From positions 1-64,000 of the IMG/VR virus record IMGVR_UViG_3300033150_001569: 64,000 nucleotides of DNA, one strand, 5' to 3'. The number at the start of each line of letters is the position of its first letter. The first letter of the stretch is position 1. Of this stretch, positions 6,437-59,167 are shown piece by piece. The position numbers and the translations under genes are program-made. The DNA comes from a virus. Below the pieces are notes generated by a model that was not told the DNA's origin, searched no databases, and worked only from the letters and a program-made list of their open reading frames with translations.

Positions 6437-6835
6437 TTATTGATTTTGAATATATTTTTTAATAATTTTTAAAGGAGCACCACTAGTGGTAGAAACAAAA
6501 TATCCTGATGACCATAAAGTTTTTTTATGTTTTCCCCAATATGGAAAACTATATTTAGATTTAAGATATGATGAAGATTTTGATTTTAAAGCTCCTATAA
6601 TATTACCTAATATATCTTGTGGTGATAATTCTAATATAAAATGTATATGGTCACTTTCACCATTTATTTCACTTATTTTTACATTCATTTGGTTCGCCAT
6701 TTTTGGTAAAATATTTATAATATCATTAAGGATATATTGATGAATACATTTATATCTAAATTTAGTAATCCACACGACATGATAGCAAAGAAAATAAACA
6801 CAATGTGCCTTACTTTTAAGATTGTTATACCTCAT
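6437..6835 (-). CDS. tnpA: IS200/IS605 transposase TnpA (HUH/Y1)
   Basis: The 132-residue protein has typical TnpA length. It begins with VYFLCYHVVWITKFRY, carries the HUH motif in ESDHIHFILEL (His-x-His near residues 63-65), and has the catalytic tyrosine in IIKKYIQNQ near the C-terminus. Such enzymes cut and rejoin single-stranded element ends through a 5'-phosphotyrosine. Its start overlaps the tnpB start by about 30 bases on the opposite strand. The frame is intact, so the protein may be active. Confidence 0.9.
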   Translation of the reverse strand: MRYNNLKSKAHCVYFLCYHVVWITKFRYKCIHQYILNDIINILPKMANQMNVKISEINGESDHIHFILELSPQDILGNIIGALKSKSSSYLKSKYSFPYWGKHKKTLWSSGYFVSTTSGAPLKIIKKYIQNQ

Positions 6836-7815
6836 AAATTTATTCCTATACTTGATAAATTATATAATAAATCATTAATTTCAGTAAATAAAATGATAAA
6901 AAATAGAACTAAATCATCATCAAAATATTATAAATCAATACCATGTGTAGTTTCAAAATCATTAATTTCTAAATATCAAAAAATAAAAAACTTAAAAGCA
7001 TTAAAAATTTAGTAATACCAATTTGTGGTGATAAAGGAAAACAAATAAAAATTGTTGATAATGGAATAAGAATTCCTGCTTTATTTAAAAAAGAAATAAT
7101 TAAAATTAATTTTCCAAAACCAATTATAGGTTTTATAAGACAAGTAGAATTTTTTAAAAGAGATAAAAAATGGTTTATGGCATATTCTTATAATGTTAAA
7201 AAAGAAAAATTATATAAAACAAAATCATTTTTAGGAATTGATAGAAATTCAGTTGATAATGTTGCTACAATTGCAAATATAAAAACTGGTAAGTTTAGAA
7301 AACTAGGACAATGTACAGCATCTATTACGAAGAATTTTAGAAATAGAAGAAGAAAACTTCAAAAGAAAGGAGCTAAAAATGTTTTAATAAAAATTAAAAG
7401 AAAACAAAATAGAATAATTAAAGATATTAATCATAAAGTATCTCGTATCATTGTTAACTATGCCAAAGAACATCGTTCTGCTTTAGTATTAGAAGATTTA
7501 GGTAAAATTAATAAATATAAATATGTTAAAAAGTCACAATGGAGTTTTTATCAATTAGAAACTTTTATTAAATATAAAGCAGCTTTGCTTGGCATACCAC
7601 TTTTATATGTTAATCCTGCTTATACAAGTCAAATTTGTAGTAAATGTGGAAGTATTAACAAAACAAATGATAAACATTATAAATGTTTAAATTGTGGATA
7701 CTTTTGTCATCGTGATGTTAATGCTGCCTTTAATATTTCAAGAAGAGGTGACAAAACAATAGGAGAAAAAGTTCCTATTGTGGGGCATATTGGTAAACCC
7801 CAAACTGGACTATAA
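6803..7815 (+). pseudogene. tnpB: TnpB RNA-guided nuclease, frameshifted
   Basis: The frame from ATG 6803 encodes MCLTFKIVIPHKF..., a TnpB N-terminus. It stops at 7012 and resumes in another frame as NLVIPICGDKGKQIKI... A missing A in the A5 run 7003-7007 explains the break. The RuvC residues are present (GIDRNSVDN Asp, LVLEDLG Glu), as are the zinc finger (CSKCG...CLNCG) and the final RuvC Asp in HRDVNAAFNI. TnpB is the element-borne, RNA-guided endonuclease ancestral to Cas12. If the indel is a sequencing error, the gene is complete at about 337 residues. Confidence 0.85.
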
Positions 7816-21106: not shown

Positions 21107-21546
21107 ATGTCTGTTATAAAAACTGAAGATATGATTCAATTAGAACAAGCAATTGATATTTTAAAAGAAGATGAAGAAAAATATAGTAATGATAATTTTA
21201 ATGAGATAGTTGATTTAAAAATGCAATTAAAAGAATTACAACAAGATATGGATAAATTTAATAAAAGTATTGATTGGTTTGATTTAAATATTAAAAAAAT
21301 AAGAAATATTAATAATTTAAATAATTATGAACAACAAGAGTTAAATAATAAAATAATAGAAAAATTGATTTTATTAATTATATTCAATCTAGATATCAAC
21401 CTGATGAATTTTTGGAAGAAAGTTTTGATTTAATTAGTAAAAAATTAAAATTTATTGATAAGAATTTAAAACAATATATAGCATCACCTAAAGATATATT
21501 TGAAGAATTAATAGGTAAATTATTTTCTAAATTAATTTCTAAATAG
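21107..21546 (+). pseudogene. Frameshifted helical protein gene
   Basis: The ATG frame encodes about 85 residues of coiled-coil-like sequence (MIQLEQAIDILKEDEEKY...MQLKELQQDMDKF). It then changes frame at the A5 run 21360-21364; one extra A continues it as IDFINYIQSRYQPDEFLEESFDL... to TAG 21546. The restored product has about 146 residues. It converges with the 5'-nuclease gene and overlaps its end by 15 bases. Confidence 0.5.
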
Positions 21547-37591: not shown

Positions 37592-38944
37592 ATGGATAAA
37601 GAAAAAATTAAAAATGATATTATAAGAGTTGCTAATAAATTAAATAAAAGACCTAGTAGAGATGAATATTTAGTTTATGGTAAATATTCAAAAAGAAATA
37701 TTGATAAAGTTTTTGGTTCTTATAGTGCAGCAATTTTTGAATCGGGTGTTGAAAAAATTGAAACAATTAAAAATCTTAAAAAATTAAGAAATGAATTAGT
37801 TAATTATGATTCTGATTGTGAAAAAGAAATAATTGAAGAAATGGAAAAACATAAAGAAAAAGTAAAAGAAAAAGTAACTAAAAGATATTATGAACAATTA
37901 AAAAAACAAAAAATGATAGGAGATCTTGTTATAGAAACAATTGAGGGATGTGCTGCTTCATTAGAAGCTAATGAGTTAAGTATAAAAGTTATTCCTTCAG
38001 ATACTAAAAAATGTGATTTTAATAAAAGTAAAGCTATTTTATGGTTAGATTTTAGTGATAGTCATATAGGAGAATTAGTTAAAAAAGAAGTTGTTGGAGG
38101 TTTGGGTGAACATAATTGGCAAATTTGGGAAGAAAAATTAAGTAAATGGGTAAATAAAGTAATTAATAAAATAAGAAATCTTAAAAATATTTATAATATA
38201 GAAAAAGTAATAATAGCATTTTTAGGAGATATAATTGATGGTGATAGTATTTATAGAAGTCATACCTATAATATTGATACTGATAAATTTTTTCAAATAA
38301 CAGAAGGTTCAGAAGATATAACAAATGCTTTAGTTAAGATTGCAAGTACATTTCCTAATATTGATTTTGAAATTTATGGAACTGGTGGAAATCATGGTAG
38401 AGATGGAAGAAAAGGAGAAAAACCATATCATATTAATTTTGATTTAATGGTTTATAAATTTATTGAAACTAGATTAAAATGTTATAATCTTAAAAATATT
38501 CAATTCAATTTTTCTATAGTTTGGTTTTCAGTAGTTTCTTTATTTTATGAAGATAAAGATTGTCCTGTTAAAGAAACAGGATGGTTAAATCTTATTCAAC
38601 ATGGTGATGGAATACCACAGAATTTAGGGATTCCTTTTTATGGTATATCAAGATCTGCTGCTAAATATGATAAAATGCTTCAAAAATGTATTCATTATAG
38701 ACATTTAGGACATTTTCATACAGGTGGAGATTTAGGTAATTCAGCAGGTGCAGATTTATTAAATGGTTGTTTTCCTGGTGGAAATGAATTTTCTGCAAAA
38801 GATTTAGCAGTTACTTCTAGACCAGAACAAAGAGGTTATTTATTTACTCCACAAGAAGGAATAGTTGATACATATCGTTTTTATCTTAGTGATTTTATAG
38901 TTCCCGATATTAAGATTTATGGAAAAGATAAAGATAAGGAATAG
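37592..38944 (+). CDS. Metallophosphoesterase with homing-type repeat, 450 aa
   Basis: Residues 1-52 (IKNDIIRVANKLNKRPSRDEYLVYGKYSKRNIDKVFGSYSAAIFESGV) match the homing-endonuclease-associated repeat, a DNA-binding helical unit. After a coiled-coil segment the phosphoesterase follows: DFSDSHIGE, FLGDIIDGDS, TGGNHGRDG, LIQHGDG and HLGHFHTGG. It lies directly upstream of terL. It might act on DNA ends during packaging, but that is inference. Confidence 0.75.
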   Translation: MDKEKIKNDIIRVANKLNKRPSRDEYLVYGKYSKRNIDKVFGSYSAAIFESGVEKIETIKNLKKLRNELVNYDSDCEKEIIEEMEKHKEKVKEKVTKRYYEQLKKQKMIGDLVIETIEGCAASLEANELSIKVIPSDTKKCDFNKSKAILWLDFSDSHIGELVKKEVVGGLGEHNWQIWEEKLSKWVNKVINKIRNLKNIYNIEKVIIAFLGDIIDGDSIYRSHTYNIDTDKFFQITEGSEDITNALVKIASTFPNIDFEIYGTGGNHGRDGRKGEKPYHINFDLMVYKFIETRLKCYNLKNIQFNFSIVWFSVVSLFYEDKDCPVKETGWLNLIQHGDGIPQNLGIPFYGISRSAAKYDKMLQKCIHYRHLGHFHTGGDLGNSAGADLLNGCFPGGNEFSAKDLAVTSRPEQRGYLFTPQEGIVDTYRFYLSDFIVPDIKIYGKDKDKE

Positions 38945-38946
38945 TT

Positions 38947-41238
38947 ATCAAAGATCATTTAAAATTACGTTATGTTACTTCTTCAAAAAAAGAAAATAGA
39001 GCAAAAGTAGATCCATTAACAGATGCATTTAAAGAATTATCAGATAGTAGTATTTTACTTTCAAATGAGAGAGAAAGTATATGGGAGCATGAAGTAGTTG
39101 ATGTTGAAAAATTTTTGTTACATAGTGACTATTTAGATCAAAAAGAATATGCACGTCCCTGGGTAGTAGATATTTTAAATGAAGTATTTGATGGTGTTGT
39201 TTATAATGCTAAAAATGGTGGAAATGATAAAGAAGGAGATTTATTATTTAAATATAAAGAAGTAATATTTAATACTGCTATTGGATGTGGTAAATGTTTA
39301 ACAGGAGAATCAATAATTAAATTAGATAATGGAACTCCAGTAGAAGTAAAAGATTTATATGATAGGTATCAAAATGGAGATAATAATTATTATACTTATT
39401 CATTAGATGAAAATAAAATAGAATTAGTAAAAAATAAAATTAAAACTGTTATTTCTAATGGTTATAAATATACTTTTGAAATATTTACAACTAATAAAAA
39501 AATAATAAGATGTACAAGTAATCATCCATTTTGGGGAACAATAAAACAAATAAATAAAATAAAACCATGTTGGAGACAATTACATACTATTAATGTTGGT
39601 GAAAAAATATTAACTTATGATTGGGAAAAGAAAAAATTTGTTTGGGATAGAATTAAAAGTATAAAATTTTCAGGAGTTAGAGAAGTATATGATTTATCAA
39701 TGGAAAATATAAATTATCCTTCTTTTGTTGCAAATGAATTTATAGTTCATAATTCATATACTTTATCATTAATATCATGTTATGTTGCTTATTTAATTTT
39801 GTGTTTAAAAGATCCTTGTAAATTTTTTAATCTTGCTCCTGGTAGTAAATTTGCAATTGTTAATAATTCTATTACACAGAAAAATGCTAAACGAGTTGTT
39901 TTTAGTGAAATATATAATAAAATATTAACATCTCCTTGGTTTCAAGATAAATATAGACCAAATCCAAGAATACAATCAGAATTACAATTTGATTATTTAC
40001 CAGATAATCCTGATTTAATTGATCCAAGAAGAAAATATAAATCAGTAACAATTATTCCTGGTTCTAGTAGTGAATTTTCTGCAATTGGTTTACAATTATT
40101 TTTAGGTATAATTGATGAAGCAAGTAAATATCCTATTATTAATGAAGTATCACAAGCAGAAACTATTTATACTACAATGGATAGACGAGTTACTTCTAGA
40201 TTTGGTTCTAGAGGATTGTTAGTTATAGCTGGATCACCTCAATATACAGGTGATTGGTTAGATGCAAAATATAAAGAGTCATTAGATGATGAATTAATTT
40301 TAACTAAAAATATTCCTTTATGGGAAGCAAAACAATCTACTTGGTTTATTGATGAAGAAACTAAAAATAAATTTTTCTATTTTCATCCTACTGATGAAGT
40401 AATTATAGAAGAAGATAATCCTAAAAAATATGATTGTATTAAAATACCTGATTTAAGAGAATATCGTAAAGCATTTGAAAAAAATCCTTCAGGAGCAAAA
40501 AGAGATTTAGGTGGAATGCCAAGTGATTCTCTTAAACCATTTTTTACAATACAAAGTGCTATTGATAAATGCATTGATTATACTAGAAAAAGTCCTTGTT
40601 TTAAAGAAACAGGAGATCAACCATTTAAATTTAAAGATTGGTTTAGACCTATTTCAGCAGGTGTTCATATTGTTCATGCTGACTTTTCATTAATGCGTGG
40701 TAAAGATTCCACGGGAATTTCGATAGGTCATATAGATCATGTTGATGAAGAAGGTTCTGTTTATGTTTATATTGATGCAATGATTAGAATGCGTGGTACT
40801 AAAGAAAAAAGATTAGATTTAGCAACTATTCGTGAAGTTATATATGAATTAACAGCTAGAGGATTTAATATTGGTTTAATTACTACAGATAGATTTCAAA
40901 GTTATGATTGTAGACAAATATTAGAAAAGAAAGGTTATAATTGTGATTTATTATCTGTAGATCAAAATATTCAACCTTATAATGATTTAAAAGAAGCTGT
41001 TTATGAAAAAAGAGTAAATTATTATGATGATCCTATATTTATACGTGAAATTAAATTACTTGAAGATATTAATGGAAAAAGAGTTGATCATCCACCAGGA
41101 GTTAATGCAATTGATGGTATGAAAAATAGTAAAGATATAAGTGATTCTGTTGCTGGTGTTGTTCATAATTTAATTAAATATCATAGAGAAATTTTAGATA
41201 ATATTGAAGAAGAAGATAATCAAGCTATTTTAATATAA
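38947..41238 (+). CDS. terL: Terminase large subunit with intein, probable non-AUG start
   Basis: The frame is open from 38938, but no ATG, GTG or TTG occurs before TTG 39115. AAGGA (38936-38940) six bases before ATC 38947 marks the likely start. The precursor has about 763 residues; about 610 remain after removal of a 153-residue intein in the Walker A motif (IGCGK/S). The Walker B is GIIDEAS, the nuclease has VHADFSLMRGKDSTG, TTDRFQSYD and the late DISDSVAG. TerL cuts concatemers and drives DNA into proheads. If TTG 39115 is used, the first 56 residues are missing. Confidence 0.85.
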   Translation: MKDHLKLRYVTSSKKENRAKVDPLTDAFKELSDSSILLSNERESIWEHEVVDVEKFLLHSDYLDQKEYARPWVVDILNEVFDGVVYNAKNGGNDKEGDLLFKYKEVIFNTAIGCGKCLTGESIIKLDNGTPVEVKDLYDRYQNGDNNYYTYSLDENKIELVKNKIKTVISNGYKYTFEIFTTNKKIIRCTSNHPFWGTIKQINKIKPCWRQLHTINVGEKILTYDWEKKKFVWDRIKSIKFSGVREVYDLSMENINYPSFVANEFIVHNSYTLSLISCYVAYLILCLKDPCKFFNLAPGSKFAIVNNSITQKNAKRVVFSEIYNKILTSPWFQDKYRPNPRIQSELQFDYLPDNPDLIDPRRKYKSVTIIPGSSSEFSAIGLQLFLGIIDEASKYPIINEVSQAETIYTTMDRRVTSRFGSRGLLVIAGSPQYTGDWLDAKYKESLDDELILTKNIPLWEAKQSTWFIDEETKNKFFYFHPTDEVIIEEDNPKKYDCIKIPDLREYRKAFEKNPSGAKRDLGGMPSDSLKPFFTIQSAIDKCIDYTRKSPCFKETGDQPFKFKDWFRPISAGVHIVHADFSLMRGKDSTGISIGHIDHVDEEGSVYVYIDAMIRMRGTKEKRLDLATIREVIYELTARGFNIGLITTDRFQSYDCRQILEKKGYNCDLLSVDQNIQPYNDLKEAVYEKRVNYYDDPIFIREIKLLEDINGKRVDHPPGVNAIDGMKNSKDISDSVAGVVHNLIKYHREILDNIEEEDNQAILI
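39295..39753 (+). other. Mini-intein in TerL (153 residues)
   Basis: It begins with Cys (CLTGESIIKLDNGTPVEVKDL), carries block B as TSNHPFWGTI, block F as VREVYDLSMENINYPSFVANEFIVHN, and ends in HN before extein Ser. There is no endonuclease domain between blocks B and F. The insertion splits the Walker A Gly-Lys/Ser, so packaging depends on splicing. Confidence 0.88.
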
Positions 41239-42227: not shown

Positions 42228-43445
42228 ATGGATGATAAAATTAAATATAAAATTTTTCAAAAATTTTTAAAATTTAAATATATAGAATCTATATTAAAAC
42301 AATTTCCAATTGATAGAGCAGATATGGGCGAAGAAGCAATGTATGATGAATTAATTGATTTTGAATTAGAATTATATGAAGCATTACAAACAGAATTTTC
42401 AAAATTATCTAAAGATTTTCAAAAATTAGAAAGTGATGCTTTTTTTGAATTATATAATGAAGAAAATATAGAAGCTGTACCATTAGTAGGAGGATTTGTT
42501 TTGGGTGTTGCTGCTTTAGATATATTTCATAATAAAGCAAATGCTTATTTAGGAACAGATTTTTTTATTAATATAAAAGATAAATTAAATGGTAATATGT
42601 TGGGAATGTATAATGAAGCATCTTCAAGAACTATTAATGAAATAGTTGCTAAATTACCTAGAGGATATAAAACTGATGGAAAAAATTATCTTAAAAATTT
42701 GCCAATTGATGATGTATTAGCAAGTGTTGATGCACAATATAGTAATTTTTTAACTGCTAATTATTTAGAAAATATATCAGGTAGAATATCAACTAGAGCT
42801 AATAAAATTTTAAATGAATTTGAAAGTAATATTGATAGAGTATTTGCTTTAAAACAAGATTTTTTAAATATTGATATTTATTCTGCTCCTTATTTATATG
42901 CCGCTTCTAGTACAATACAAAATTTAATTAGAAATAGAGCTATTGTTAATGTATATCAAAGAGCAAAAGTTACTACAGTAACATTTAATGCAGTTGGTGA
43001 TGATAGAACTTGTTTTCCAGAATTTGTTTCAGTTTTAACTTCTAATGGTAGAAAAAAAATTAAAGATATAAAAATTAATGATGAAGTATTAACACATAAA
43101 GGTAATTATAAAAAAGTTTTGGCAAGACAATGTTTCAATTATAATGATGATATTTATGAAATAAAACCAGAAAATAAAAAATTTAGAAATTTAAAATGTA
43201 CGAAGAATCATCCAATTTTAATTAAAAGAAATAATGAATATTATTGGATAGAAGCTAGAAATTTAAAAATTGGTGATATAATCATTAAATATAATTATTT
43301 AATTAAAAAATCAAAATGTAAATTTTGTGGAAAAGAATTTTATGCTAAATATTATTCTACTCATAAAAATTATTCATTATATTGTTCTTTAGATTGTTAT
43401 TTTAAAAGAAAAACTAAAAATATGATTGAAACTAAGTGTTGGTAA
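42228..43445 (+). CDS. Head-morphogenesis protein (SPP1 gp7/Mu gpF-like), N-part with N-intein
   Basis: Residues 1-261 are the N-extein: helical, then NLIRNRAIVNVYQRAKVTTVTFNAVGDDRT, the conserved D-x-R-T region of SPP1 gp7-type minor head proteins. Cys262 (43011) starts an intein N-half: CFPEFVSVLTSNGRKKI...DEVLTHKGNYKKV, block B CTKNHPILIK, then LKIGDIIIKYN. A zinc-finger segment (CKFCGKEF...YCSLDCYF) follows and the frame stops at 43445. The remainder is encoded by the ORF at 43760. This protein links portal and capsid assembly. Confidence 0.82.
   Translation: MDDKIKYKIFQKFLKFKYIESILKQFPIDRADMGEEAMYDELIDFELELYEALQTEFSKLSKDFQKLESDAFFELYNEENIEAVPLVGGFVLGVAALDIFHNKANAYLGTDFFINIKDKLNGNMLGMYNEASSRTINEIVAKLPRGYKTDGKNYLKNLPIDDVLASVDAQYSNFLTANYLENISGRISTRANKILNEFESNIDRVFALKQDFLNIDIYSAPYLYAASSTIQNLIRNRAIVNVYQRAKVTTVTFNAVGDDRTCFPEFVSVLTSNGRKKIKDIKINDEVLTHKGNYKKVLARQCFNYNDDIYEIKPENKKFRNLKCTKNHPILIKRNNEYYWIEARNLKIGDIIIKYNYLIKKSKCKFCGKEFYAKYYSTHKNYSLYCSLDCYFKRKTKNMIETKCW
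43011..43310 (+). other. N-terminal half of a split or fractured intein
   Basis: About 100 residues from Cys262 with splicing blocks A and B intact, inserted after the DDRT motif. Its partner, blocks F and G, lies at 43760-43933 behind a separate ribosome site and ATG. Confidence 0.75.
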
Positions 43446-43766
43446 AAGAATAAAACATATTAATAAATTTGATAATAAAGAAATTATTTTTAGTAGTTCT
43501 TGGGAATATAAATATGCATTATATTTAGAAAAAATAATATTAAATATATTTATGAATATAAAAGATTTAAAATAAAAAATAAAAATTTTAGAGATTATAC
43601 TCCAGATTTTTATTTAATAGATTCCGATGAATATATAGAAATAAAAGGAAGAAAAAAGAAAAAATTTGAAGAAAAATATATTATATTTAAAAAAGAAAGT
43701 CCAAATATAAAAATTAAAATATTATATCAAAATGATCTTAAAAATTTAGGAATTAAATTATGTTAA
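43311..43766 (+). pseudogene. PD-(D/E)XK-like homing endonuclease inside the intein, broken
   Basis: A zinc finger (SKCKFCGKEF...YCSLDC) is followed, in another frame, by SSSWEYKYALYLEK. After the A6 run 43529-43534, a third frame gives NNIKYIYEYKRF...RDYTPDFYLI...EYIEIKGRKKKKFEEKY...LKNLGIKLC, stopping at 43766. SSWE, YTPDF and EIKG provide the Glu, Asp and E-x-K of a PD-(D/E)XK or Vsr-like homing nuclease, the type known from fractured phage genes with split inteins. Two frame changes make an active enzyme unlikely unless they are sequencing errors. Confidence 0.65.
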
Positions 43767-45427
43767 AATTAACAAAAGAAGAATCAAAAATAATTGATGA
43801 TATGTTAAAAAATAAGGTTTGTAGTGAAACTAAAATTAAAGAAATTAATAATAAAAAGAGAAATATTAAAGTTTATAATTTAGAAGTAGAAGACGATTTT
43901 ACATATAATGCAAATGATTATATTGTTCATAATACTGCTCTTTGTTTAAGTCTTAATCAAAGAGAATGGCAATTAACAGATATTTTAAATAAATTTGCAG
44001 AAGTTGATAATTTAGAATTACCTAGTGATGATTATAAAGAATCAATTAATAGATTAAAAGAAGCTCATCCATTTTTTAGATTTGATACTATAGCAGCAAG
44101 AGAAGGAAAAGATTCTATATATAAAGTTGATCGTGAAGGTAATAGAGATTATATAAAAGGTTCACGATTTGCTTATGATAGTGATACAGGAAAATATCGT
44201 CCTAATGTTAGTGATGATTATGTTGGTAATTTTATAGAAGCTGGAATTCCTTGTCCTCCGCTTCACAATTTTTGCTATCAGATAGATACGGAAGTTTATA
44301 CTAAAAGAGGTTGGTTATTATTTAAAAATTTAAAAGATAATGATTTAATTCTTACATTAAATCCAGAAACAAAAGATTTAGAATGGAGTAAAATTATAAG
44401 ACAAATATCATATAAATATAATGGTAAAATGATTTTATTTACAAATAATCAACATTCTTTAGATTTATGTGTTACTCCAGATCATCAACATTTTTATTAT
44501 AAAAGAGTAGATCATGCTACTAAAGGTAGATGGATGGAACCTATTTTTGCTAATTTTGAACAATTAAAAAAATCTGGTTCTGAAGTTATGTTTTATATTT
44601 CTAGTGAATGGAAAGGTGAAGATAAAAAATATATTGAAATAAATGGATTAAAATTAAAAACTGAAGATTATTGTAGATTAATGGGTTATTATTTATCTGA
44701 AGGTAGTACTAAAAAAGTAAGAAGTAATTCTGGTAATTATTATGCTCAAATAGCACAAGAAAAATTTATTAATAAAATGTATGAAGATATTAAAGATATT
44801 GGTTTAAAAAATATTACTAAAACAAAAGATAAAATACATATTTATGATATTAGATTTGGAAATTATGCAAAACAATTTGGTTATTCTTATGAAAAATATA
44901 TTCCAGAAGAAATTATGGAATTATCTCCAAATTATATAAGAATATTTTTAGATGCTTATAATTTAGGAGATGGTAGTATATTTATTAATAATAATTTTAA
45001 AGATTATCGAAAAGATATAAAATTTAAAGAATTAAAAAATTATTGTACAAGTTCTAAAAAAATTGCAAATCAAATAGGAGAATTAATATTAAAAGTTGGA
45101 AAATCTCCTAGTTTTAGAAAAGAAATGGTTAAAGGTAAAAAACAAAAATTTAGAAATGGTATTTATATAATTAATCATAATATTTATATTATTAATGAAT
45201 TATCATCTAAATATAGAAAACCAAGAATAATAAAAGAAATAGATTATAATGATTATGTTTATGATATAGAAGTAGAAAAAAATCATACGTTATGGGTAAG
45301 AAGAAATGGCAAAGCAGTTTGGTCAAGTAATTGTCGTTCTTGGTTAACAAGCACTCAAGAAACTTTTGATGAATTAGTTGAAACAATAGAAACAGAAAGA
45401 AAAAAAGATAATAAAAATTATATTTAA
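43760..45427 (+). CDS. Head-morphogenesis protein C-part with C-intein and second intein
   Basis: AGGA lies eight bases before ATG 43760, and a stop in the same frame sits just upstream, so this is a separate translation unit. Residues 1-58 are a C-intein ending VYNLEVEDDFTYNANDYIVHN, then extein Thr. The extein continues TALCLSLNQREWQLTDILNKF...PCPPLHNF, is interrupted by a 353-residue LAGLIDADG intein, and ends CRSWLTSTQETFDELVETI. CPPLHN/CRSWLT is the metal-like signature of SPP1 gp7-type proteins. Spliced with the N-part, the protein has about 405 residues. Confidence 0.82.
   Translation: MLKLTKEESKIIDDMLKNKVCSETKIKEINNKKRNIKVYNLEVEDDFTYNANDYIVHNTALCLSLNQREWQLTDILNKFAEVDNLELPSDDYKESINRLKEAHPFFRFDTIAAREGKDSIYKVDREGNRDYIKGSRFAYDSDTGKYRPNVSDDYVGNFIEAGIPCPPLHNFCYQIDTEVYTKRGWLLFKNLKDNDLILTLNPETKDLEWSKIIRQISYKYNGKMILFTNNQHSLDLCVTPDHQHFYYKRVDHATKGRWMEPIFANFEQLKKSGSEVMFYISSEWKGEDKKYIEINGLKLKTEDYCRLMGYYLSEGSTKKVRSNSGNYYAQIAQEKFINKMYEDIKDIGLKNITKTKDKIHIYDIRFGNYAKQFGYSYEKYIPEEIMELSPNYIRIFLDAYNLGDGSIFINNNFKDYRKDIKFKELKNYCTSSKKIANQIGELILKVGKSPSFRKEMVKGKKQKFRNGIYIINHNIYIINELSSKYRKPRIIKEIDYNDYVYDIEVEKNHTLWVRRNGKAVWSSNCRSWLTSTQETFDELVETIETERKKDNKNYI
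44273..45331 (+). other. Intein with LAGLIDADG endonuclease (353 residues)
   Basis: It starts at Cys172 of the ORF (CYQIDTEVYTKRGWLLFKNL), has block B VTPDHQHFYY, LAGLIDADG motifs CRLMGYYLSEGST and FLDAYNLGDGS, and ends IEVEKNHTLWVRRNGKAVWSSN before extein Cys. It lies between Phe and Cys of the conserved CPPLHNF/CRSW. All parts look intact, so both splicing and homing could be active. Confidence 0.88.
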
Positions 45428-57563: not shown

Positions 57564-57580
57564 AAATTAGGAGTTTAAAA

Positions 57581-59167
57581 ATTAATATTCAACCTTATTA
57601 TCAAAAACCAGATAGACAAATTTATACTATTCATGAAGAATTTGATCAAGAAAGAAATGAATTAGAAGAAGCATTTCAAGAAGTTTATGAAGATATTTCT
57701 AGTGGAAGAGGATCAATTGATTTAGTTCCTGATATATTAGATGAAGATAACTTACCTGAAGCTGATATTATTTTAACTGATTCAAATTCTAATGCACTGG
57801 CAAATACTATTAGTTCTGCAAATGATTATGATGTCATATTAATTGATGTTGATGCAATATATGATCCTATTGTTATTAATAAACCAATAACAATATTAGT
57901 ATCAAGTGATAAAACAGTAAAAATAAATGCAACTGGAAGTACTTATGGTATTTCTTTTACTGATGGAACAAAAAATGTTTTAATTTATGGTATTGAAGTT
58001 TATGGACAACAAGGTTCAAATACTCCTGGTGCTACTGATAATGCAGGAGGAATATGTTTACAATCTCCTGCTCTAGTTCAAAATATTGTTTTATATAAAT
58101 GTTATGTTCATGATTGTGATGAAGCAGGAATTCAATTTCAAAGAACAGCATTAGTAACAAGTTCTCCTAGTAGTGAAGAAGATTTATGTAGAAATATATG
58201 GATAATAGAATGTACTATTGATAATTGTTCTAGAGTTGATAATTCTGAAAATGGTGGAATTGTTTTTTATGATGCAAGAGATGTATATATAATTGGAAAC
58301 AATTCTTATAATAATTTACGTGGAATATTATGTAGTAATACAATTAAAGCTATTATTAAAGGAAATTTAACTAAAAATAGTAAACAATGTGGAATTAAAT
58401 TTGATACTGTTGTTTCAGCACAATTTCCTAGATCACATGGTTTAATTGCAGATAATCTTTCAATTGAAGATTGTACTATTGTATATGGTGCTGGTATTAG
58501 AATTGATGATTTATCTAGTGTAAGTGTTATAAATAATGTTGTATATAAAAGTTATAATGATGGTATTTTAATAGAAGACAATTCTGATTCATCATTTGTT
58601 GTTAATAATATTATTATGGATTGTAATGCAAATGGTATAAAAATAGAAGATAGTATAGATCGTATTTTAGTTTTAAATAATAATAGTTATAATAATGGAA
58701 CAGATTATGATTTAGGAATTAATACTCCTAATTCTATAACTAATATTTCATGTAATCCATATTTTGAAGATGTTTCAAATGAAAATTTTGCATTAAAACA
58801 GAAATCACCATGTTTATTTTCTGGTTTTAATATGACAAAAATGGGAAATTTAACTTTAGAAAGAACATTAAAAAATATTTTTAATAATATATTAGTAAGA
58901 AATACTTTAGATCATTTATGTAGTTTAAGATTAATATTATTTCCACAAACAGAAAGAAATGGAACAATTAATGTTTCTTCTGTTACTTATGTTGATATTT
59001 ATTTTAGATATCCATTTCCAAATAATGATTATCGAGTATTTCTTACTCCAAATGATAATATTAATTTTTGGGTTACAAATAAAACAAAAGATGGATTTAA
59101 AATAAATTTTTCATCTAGTTTTTCTGGTGATGTTGATTGGTTTGTTAAATCATTAGGATTATCATAA
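57581..59167 (+). CDS. Tail spike with parallel beta-helix, probable ATT start, 528 aa
   Basis: The frame is open from upstream of the ribosome site TTAGGAG (57568-57573) but has no ATG for about 1 kb; ATT 57581, seven bases after the site, is the likely start. Residues 8-35 (QKPDRQIYTIHEEFDQERNELEEAF) match the fibre at 55567 and probably anchor both to the tail. Repeated turns such as NGIKIEDS, GIVFYDARDVYIIGNNSY and CNPYFEDVSNENFALKQKSPC indicate a right-handed beta-helix, as in depolymerase spikes. The C-terminus is a beta domain. Confidence 0.65.
   Translation: MNIQPYYQKPDRQIYTIHEEFDQERNELEEAFQEVYEDISSGRGSIDLVPDILDEDNLPEADIILTDSNSNALANTISSANDYDVILIDVDAIYDPIVINKPITILVSSDKTVKINATGSTYGISFTDGTKNVLIYGIEVYGQQGSNTPGATDNAGGICLQSPALVQNIVLYKCYVHDCDEAGIQFQRTALVTSSPSSEEDLCRNIWIIECTIDNCSRVDNSENGGIVFYDARDVYIIGNNSYNNLRGILCSNTIKAIIKGNLTKNSKQCGIKFDTVVSAQFPRSHGLIADNLSIEDCTIVYGAGIRIDDLSSVSVINNVVYKSYNDGILIEDNSDSSFVVNNIIMDCNANGIKIEDSIDRILVLNNNSYNNGTDYDLGINTPNSITNISCNPYFEDVSNENFALKQKSPCLFSGFNMTKMGNLTLERTLKNIFNNILVRNTLDHLCSLRLILFPQTERNGTINVSSVTYVDIYFRYPFPNNDYRVFLTPNDNINFWVTNKTKDGFKINFSSSFSGDVDWFVKSLGLS

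What the first reader, a model, noticed from the sequence alone, without database searches (positions are those of the whole stretch)
43011..43933. Fractured head gene: split intein with a nuclease gene between the halves
The N-intein (blocks A, B) ends in one ORF. The C-intein (blocks F, G) begins in another ORF with its own AGGA ribosome site eight bases before ATG 43760 and an in-frame stop just upstream. Between them lie zinc-finger and PD-(D/E)XK-like motifs in different frames. Three separate interruptions are hard to blame on one sequencing error. Fractured genes with split inteins and Vsr-like nucleases are known from phage metagenomes, but I know of none in a gp7/gpF-type head gene. 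If real, the head protein must be assembled by trans-splicing of two polypeptides.
Basis: partly seen in the sequence, partly recalled or inferred. Interest (0 to 1): 0.85.

Follow-up and report, generated by a model that had tools for sequence, protein, structure and literature searches.

The report
Phage head gene split by intein
A phage head-assembly gene is cut into two overlapping genes inside an intein that carries a (now broken) DNA-cutting enzyme, so the head protein must be stitched together from two separately made pieces; related phages carry intact versions of the same split cassette, which shows that the split is real and mobile.

Summary
The intein (43011-43933) sits in a MuF/gp7-type head gene. 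Its halves lie in two ORFs, with a zinc-finger/PD-(D/E)XK nuclease spread over two frames between them. But the three interruptions are not alike. Break 3, where the nuclease stop 43764-43766 overlaps the C-half ATG 43760 (ATGTTAA), is a conserved boundary: four distinct metagenomic phage terminase genes carry the same cassette, IntN fused in frame to the same nuclease family, whose stop overlaps the IntC start (ATGA/GTGA). Breaks 1 (43426-43445) and 2 (A-run 43529-43534) lie inside the nuclease and cancel each other; they are either decay of a dispensable nuclease or contig indels. Either way two polypeptides are made, and trans-splicing is the best explanation. Fractured MuF-type genes are not unique: three further contigs are split at another site, with an HNH nuclease. 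One cassette pair is nearly identical inside diverged exteins (recent homing), and one split form appears to have healed into a one-piece mini-intein by a microhomology deletion. Verdict: a real new variant of the known 'fractured gene' arrangement.

The parts
42228..43010 (+). N-extein of the MuF/gp7-type head protein (261 aa)
   Evidence: spliced extein matches phrog_13868 1.1e-7 and, weakly, head morphogenesis phrog_241 0.0017; homologous to L020 MuF gene, E 5e-7
43011..43298 (+). IntN, N-terminal half of the intein (blocks A and B; Cys1, TKNH)
43314..43425 (+). Cys4 zinc finger (KCKFCGKEF..YCSLDC), start of the nuclease domain, in frame with IntN
43426..43445 (+). Break 1: shift from frame 0 to frame 1 between TGA 43423-43425 (frame 1) and TAA 43443-43445 (frame 0)
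43446..43528 (+). Nuclease segment in frame 1 (RIKHINKFDNKEIIFSSSWEYKYALYLE) with the conserved SSWE
43529..43534 (+). Break 2: run of six A; the family reading LEKNNIKY needs seven
43535..43766 (+). Rest of the PD-(D/E)XK nuclease back in frame 0 (YTPDFYL, YIEIKG), ending at TAA
43748..43751 (+). Shine-Dalgarno-like AGGA, 8 bases before ATG 43760
   Evidence: 4-base SD match at 64% of likely starts versus 14% of internal ATGs in this contig
43760..43766 (+). ATGTTAA: start of the IntC ORF overlapping the stop of the nuclease frame
   Evidence: same place as ATGA/GTGA in L101, L102, L112, L116
43760..43933 (+). IntC, C-terminal half of the intein (blocks F and G, HN|T)
43934..44272 (+). C-extein, part 1
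   Evidence: continuous with the N-extein when compared with intein-1-less L020 (DARTTPFCL)
44273..45331 (+). Second intein, one piece, LAGLIDADG, at the PPLHNF|CRSW site
   Evidence: 40% identical intein at the same site in L020
45332..45427 (+). C-extein, part 2

Best explanation
The intein and its homing nuclease form one cassette laid out as two overlapping ORFs. ORF 1 makes head-N + IntN + a zinc-finger/PD-(D/E)XK nuclease tail. ORF 2, started by its own AGGA site and a start codon that overlaps the nuclease stop, makes IntC + head-C. The two polypeptides associate through the intein halves, which splice in trans and release an intact head protein; a second, one-piece intein leaves the C-half in cis. 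The nuclease would let the cassette home into empty alleles. In this contig the nuclease frame is broken by two compensating one-base shifts, most likely decay after fixation, though contig errors are possible. Neither shift touches IntN, the IntC start site or the splicing residues. Shown here: layout, conserved stop/start overlap, intact splicing motifs, recent movement of a relative. Inferred: trans-splicing, translational coupling, homing by the nuclease, decay rather than error.
For: Same layout in fractured terminases L101/L104, L102, L112, L116: IntN+nuclease ORF, overlap ATGA or GTGA, IntC ORF. Streptococcus phage GXN1 (a named complete-genome record) has IntN+nuclease overlapping IntC in its terminase. 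Among 57 loci of the nuclease family, none had the nuclease and an IntC motif in one ORF. The L101 and L102 cassettes are essentially identical while the flanking exteins are 70-87% identical, i.e. recent homing across the split. Splicing residues are intact and the joined halves pass the Pfam intein cut-off. Intein-1 site empty in L020 and L186. No group I intron or other non-tRNA Rfam family in the window.
Against: No expression or splicing data. The seven-base overlap differs from the four-base overlap of the closest relatives. With the nuclease frame broken, the first ribosomes stop about 315 bases before the C-half ATG, so coupling through the nuclease frame is lost in this copy and ORF 2 must rely on its own site. 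Charge complementarity of the halves is weak here (+9 and 0), unlike L101 (+14/-10) or GXN1 (-12/+7). Other likely frame breaks in the contig (near 1306, 7001, 21359, 95715) leave contig indels possible.
Confidence: 0.78

Rival explanations
1. Same two-ORF split cassette and trans-splicing, but breaks 1 and 2 are contig errors: the real gene 1 is an intact head-N-IntN-nuclease ORF running to 43766, and the nuclease is active. (A sub-case of the best explanation as regards splicing; it differs on the nuclease only.)
For: Break 2 is a one-base loss in an A-run; the break near 21359 looks alike, and about four other clear frame breaks exist in 122 kb. All active-site residues (SSWE, PDF, EIK) are intact. 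Relatives have the nuclease intact.
Against: Two indels within about 100 bases is far denser than the rest of the contig; break 1 is not in a homopolymer; another break falls in a dispensable TnpB gene, which fits decay.
Confidence: 0.4
2. One-piece intein with an in-frame nuclease; all three breaks are sequence errors and splicing is in cis.
For: Most nuclease-containing inteins are one piece; mini-inteins at the terminase site of L175 and L180 are one piece.
Against: Break 3 coincides with a stop/start overlap found in four distinct relatives and in GXN1; it would need an error exactly there, next to an SD-like site.
Confidence: 0.06
3. Classical fractured gene with a free-standing nuclease gene between the two halves.
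For: Literature precedent: the fractured-gene arrangement, and PolB of phage MIJ3 with a separate HNH ORF between the halves (PMC6892783).
Against: The zinc finger is fused in frame to IntN; the only start (TTG 43426) has no SD and lies after the zinc finger; relatives are IntN-nuclease fusions.
Confidence: 0.05
4. The head gene is dead or makes two unligated, separately working halves.
For: A gene broken by indels in a single contig.
Against: Splicing residues and both extein parts are intact; portal and the long structural ORFs of the contig are mostly intact; intact intein halves would be unexplained.
Confidence: 0.06
5. Programmed +1 then -1 frameshifting restores the full nuclease at low level.
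For: The two shifts cancel; one lies in an A-run.
Against: Break 1 has no recognisable slippery site; no relative shows it.
Confidence: 0.03

Closest known systems
Fractured genes with split inteins and a homing nuclease (Dassa et al. 2009, cited in PMC6892783; its details here are from memory because the paper is not held)
   Same: A gene broken inside an intein, a nuclease between the intein halves, phage origin
   Different: Here and in the relatives the nuclease is the C-terminal part of the IntN ORF and its stop overlaps the IntC start; host gene is MuF; nuclease broken in this contig
Metagenomic phage terminase cassettes L101, L102, L112, L116 (IMG/VR)
   Same: IntN + same nuclease family in one ORF, stop/start overlap, IntC ORF
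   Different: Host gene terminase (Walker A region); nuclease intact; overlap of four bases instead of seven; longer, NUMOD-type middle part between IntN and the catalytic core
MuF-type genes L155, L158, L160 (IMG/VR)
   Same: MuF-type head gene split by an intein into overlapping ORFs
   Different: Other site (PPxHPN|C); HNH nuclease fused to IntC rather than to IntN
Streptococcus phage GXN1 terminase (PQ819873)
   Same: IntN + nuclease ORF overlapping an IntC ORF that has a strong SD
   Different: DUF559-like nuclease; overlap of 20 bases; named phage record
Split PolB intein of Pseudomonas phage MIJ3 (PMC6892783) and split RNR genes of Campylobacter phages CP20 and CC_R7
   Same: Phage gene carried as intein-bearing halves
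   Different: Separate ORFs between the halves; other host genes
Bacillus phage SP-15 endonuclease in the major capsid gene
   Same: Same nuclease family inside a head gene
   Different: Gene annotated as joined from two pieces (intron-like), no intein seen

Membership tests
Intein (class 1 splicing domain) | Blocks A, B, F, G with Cys1, TxxH, terminal HN and C/S/T at +1 | tested here: met
   CFPEFV.., TKNH, VHN|T; Pfam Intein_splicing 51.4 bits for joined halves, cut-off 35.8
Split intein | N and C halves encoded by separate ORFs, each with its own start | tested here: met
   same boundary in relatives
Split intein | Splices in trans | not testable with these tools
   needs co-expression
Fractured gene (split intein + free-standing nuclease gene) | Host gene broken inside the intein | tested here: met
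Fractured gene (split intein + free-standing nuclease gene) | Nuclease is a separate, free-standing gene | tested here: not met
   zinc finger in frame with IntN; no plausible nuclease start; relatives are fusions
PD-(D/E)XK homing nuclease (Phage_endo_I-like) | E..PD..ExK core in the family alignment | tested here: met
   SSWE, YTPDF, YIEIKG aligned with 16 relatives; phrog_22215 4e-11; PF05367 27.1 bits, below cut-off 29.1
PD-(D/E)XK homing nuclease (Phage_endo_I-like) | Intact reading frame in this contig | tested here: not met
   two frame breaks
MuF / gp7 head protein | Homology to Phage_Mu_F or head morphogenesis families | tested here: inconclusive
   No direct Pfam hit for the spliced extein; head-protein PHROGs weak; homolog L020 matches PF04233 at 3.4e-5, below cut-off; the gene lies just before the portal gene
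Group I intron | Intron RNA around the nuclease | tested here: not met
   only tRNAs found in the window by Rfam

The most novel reading that the evidence does not exclude
A mobile cassette class in which an intein and its nuclease are written as two overlapping, translationally coupled ORFs, so that the host gene is obligatorily trans-spliced while the cassette is active. The fracture is a reversible stage: deletion of the nuclease by microhomology restores a one-piece mini-intein. The window is a stage at which the nuclease is decaying but the gene is still split.
Probability: 0.45. Interest if true: 0.72.

Novelty: new variant of a known kind. Interest (0 to 1): 0.6.

Why it matters
It turns a single odd locus into a testable model for how natural split inteins arise, move and heal: nuclease fused to one half, overlapping stop/start, recent transfer of the whole split cassette, and collapse to a mini-intein by nuclease loss. 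The relatives also offer new candidate split inteins in phage packaging genes, useful as trans-splicing tools. For the phage it means a structural head protein depends on assembly of two polypeptides.

Tried and rejected
Close relatives of the head gene or portal in viral contigs by single-protein query: none. Phage records for nuclease and extein: no match until the nuclease query was shortened and the limit loosened. Exact DNA match across the IntC/extein junction: none, so the indels could not be checked in a sister contig; close records may be left out by the tool. Genome contigs scan with the nuclease: one MAG contig, L172 (labelled Nanoarchaeota), with two free-standing relatives near phage-like genes. 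Group I intron: rejected by Rfam. Charge complementarity as a sign of a split intein: not clear for the window. Structure prediction not run: the two halves cannot be co-folded here, and a single chain would not test trans-splicing. Dassa et al. 2009 is not in the paper library; three further literature searches gave nothing.

Full report
WHAT IS THERE. The window is bases 1-64000 of a 122,307-base virus record, about 20-28% G+C, with terminase, a MuF-type head gene and portal in order. The head gene 42228-45427 holds two inteins. The second (44273-45331, LAGLIDADG) is in one piece. The first (43011-43933) is the finding. Its N half (blocks A, B) ends ORF 42228-43445; its C half (blocks F, G) begins ORF 43760-45427. 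Joined, the halves pass the Pfam intein cut-off (51.4 versus 35.8 bits). Removing both inteins leaves a 405-residue protein. An intein-1-less relative, L020, reads DARTTPFCL across the site, against DDRT|TALCL here, so the exteins are complete; L186, an L020-like contig, also has the site empty.

THE THREE BREAKS ARE NOT ALIKE. Between the halves runs a zinc-finger plus PD-(D/E)XK nuclease whose frame goes 0-1-0 before the C half in frame 2. A codon-usage model places switches at 43432, 43528 and 43760; only the last has an ATG. Break 1 lies between TGA 43423-43425 and TAA 43443-43445. Break 2 is at six A (43529-43534) where the family reading (LEKNNIKY) needs seven. Both are inside the nuclease and cancel. 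Break 3 is an overlap: nuclease stop TAA 43764-43766 over ATG 43760, with AGGA eight bases upstream. In this contig a four-base SD match precedes 64% of likely starts but only 14% of internal ATGs.

RELATIVES. A scan with the nuclease alignment gave 57 loci. In L101/L104, L102, L112 and L116 the terminase gene is split in the same way: IntN and nuclease form one ORF whose stop overlaps the IntC start as ATGA or GTGA. The ends even read alike (window ..NLGIKLC*, L101 ..ALGIKL*). In none of the 57 loci was an IntC motif found in the same ORF as the nuclease (a simple motif search). GXN1, a named Streptococcus phage record, has the same plan in its terminase with another nuclease type.

THE CASSETTE MOVES, AND CAN HEAL. 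L101 and L102 are essentially identical from about 1733 to 2872 (one 60-base bin at 0.98, the rest 1.00), which spans IntN, nuclease, overlap and IntC, while the flanks are 70-87% identical: recent transfer of the split unit. At the same terminase site, L175-L177 and L180 carry one-piece mini-inteins that begin their C part at the very same MIKFDEIES. L175 is an L112-like form lacking 542 bases, joined through the shared CTATGA. I read this as loss of the nuclease healing a fractured gene; the opposite direction is less likely because L175 keeps the residues that follow IntN in L112 up to the junction.

FRACTURED MuF GENES ELSEWHERE. An IntN scan found L155, L158 and L160: MuF-type genes split at PPxHPN|C into an IntN ORF and an overlapping HNH-nuclease-IntC ORF. 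L155 ORF 1 passes the Phage_Mu_F cut-off; for L158 and L160 the MuF assignment rests on the shared motif. Gordonia phage Barsten has a one-piece intein at that site. So the window is not the only fractured MuF gene, but I saw no other intein at the DxRT|T site.

ERROR OR DECAY. Besides the intein there are about four clear frame breaks in the 122 kb (near 1306, 7001 in TnpB, 21359, 95715) and several doubtful ones. Two breaks within about 100 bases is well above that background, and TnpB and a homing nuclease are both dispensable, which favours decay; but A-run losses recur, and no second contig or reads were available. I put decay at roughly 55% and error at 45%. The conclusion of two polypeptides does not depend on it.

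MECHANISM. Shown: layout, conserved overlap, intact splicing residues, movement of a relative. Inferred from intein biochemistry: head-N-IntN(-nuclease tail) and IntC-head-C associate and trans-splice; the second intein leaves in cis. In intact relatives the overlap would couple translation of the halves and keep them near equimolar; here the C half must start mainly on its own AGGA site. The nuclease is inferred to cut empty alleles; PMC8966425 describes nuclease degeneration after saturation of alleles, which fits this copy.

NOVELTY. The plan is a variant of fractured genes (as cited in PMC6892783): split intein plus nuclease, but the nuclease is fused to a half and the ORFs overlap. The held literature gave no description of that overlap, but the key 2009 paper could not be read, so novelty of the layout is stated with caution.

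Noticed in passing
L161:1266-2015, L163:672-1499, L165:3126-3902, L166:3155-3841: Inteins that are in one piece while an HNH or DUF559-type nuclease is encoded in a different reading frame on the same strand inside the intein coding sequence (Pfam HNH_3 1.5e-13 and 1.1e-9, HNH 5.6e-5, DUF559 9.5e-8): nested out-of-frame homing nucleases.
   Followed up: partly
L175-L177 and L180 versus L101, L112, L116: One-piece mini-inteins at the same terminase site as the split forms; L175 lacks 542 bases relative to L112, joined through a 6-base CTATGA microhomology at the IntC ATG.
   Followed up: yes
window 38930-38960 and 57566-57590: Terminase and the gene at 57566 lack ATG/GTG/TTG starts near their open-frame beginning; SD-like AAGGA and AGGAG stand before ATC/ATT codons, so rare start codons (or errors) are likely.
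   Followed up: partly
window 6710-7815: TnpB-like gene interrupted by one frameshift near 7001.
   Followed up: partly
contig 66780-67050 (L004:2780-3050): Frame switch without a start codon upstream of a long ORF; may be a programmed frameshift of tail chaperone type.
   Followed up: no
window 39322-39753: One-piece mini-intein in the terminase Walker A motif (GCGK|S), without nuclease.
   Followed up: partly
L089 (Bacillus phage SP-15) 2572-3378: The same nuclease family lies inside the interrupted major capsid gene.
   Followed up: partly
L172 (MAG contig labelled Nanoarchaeota): Two free-standing nucleases of the family beside genes that look phage-like.
   Followed up: no
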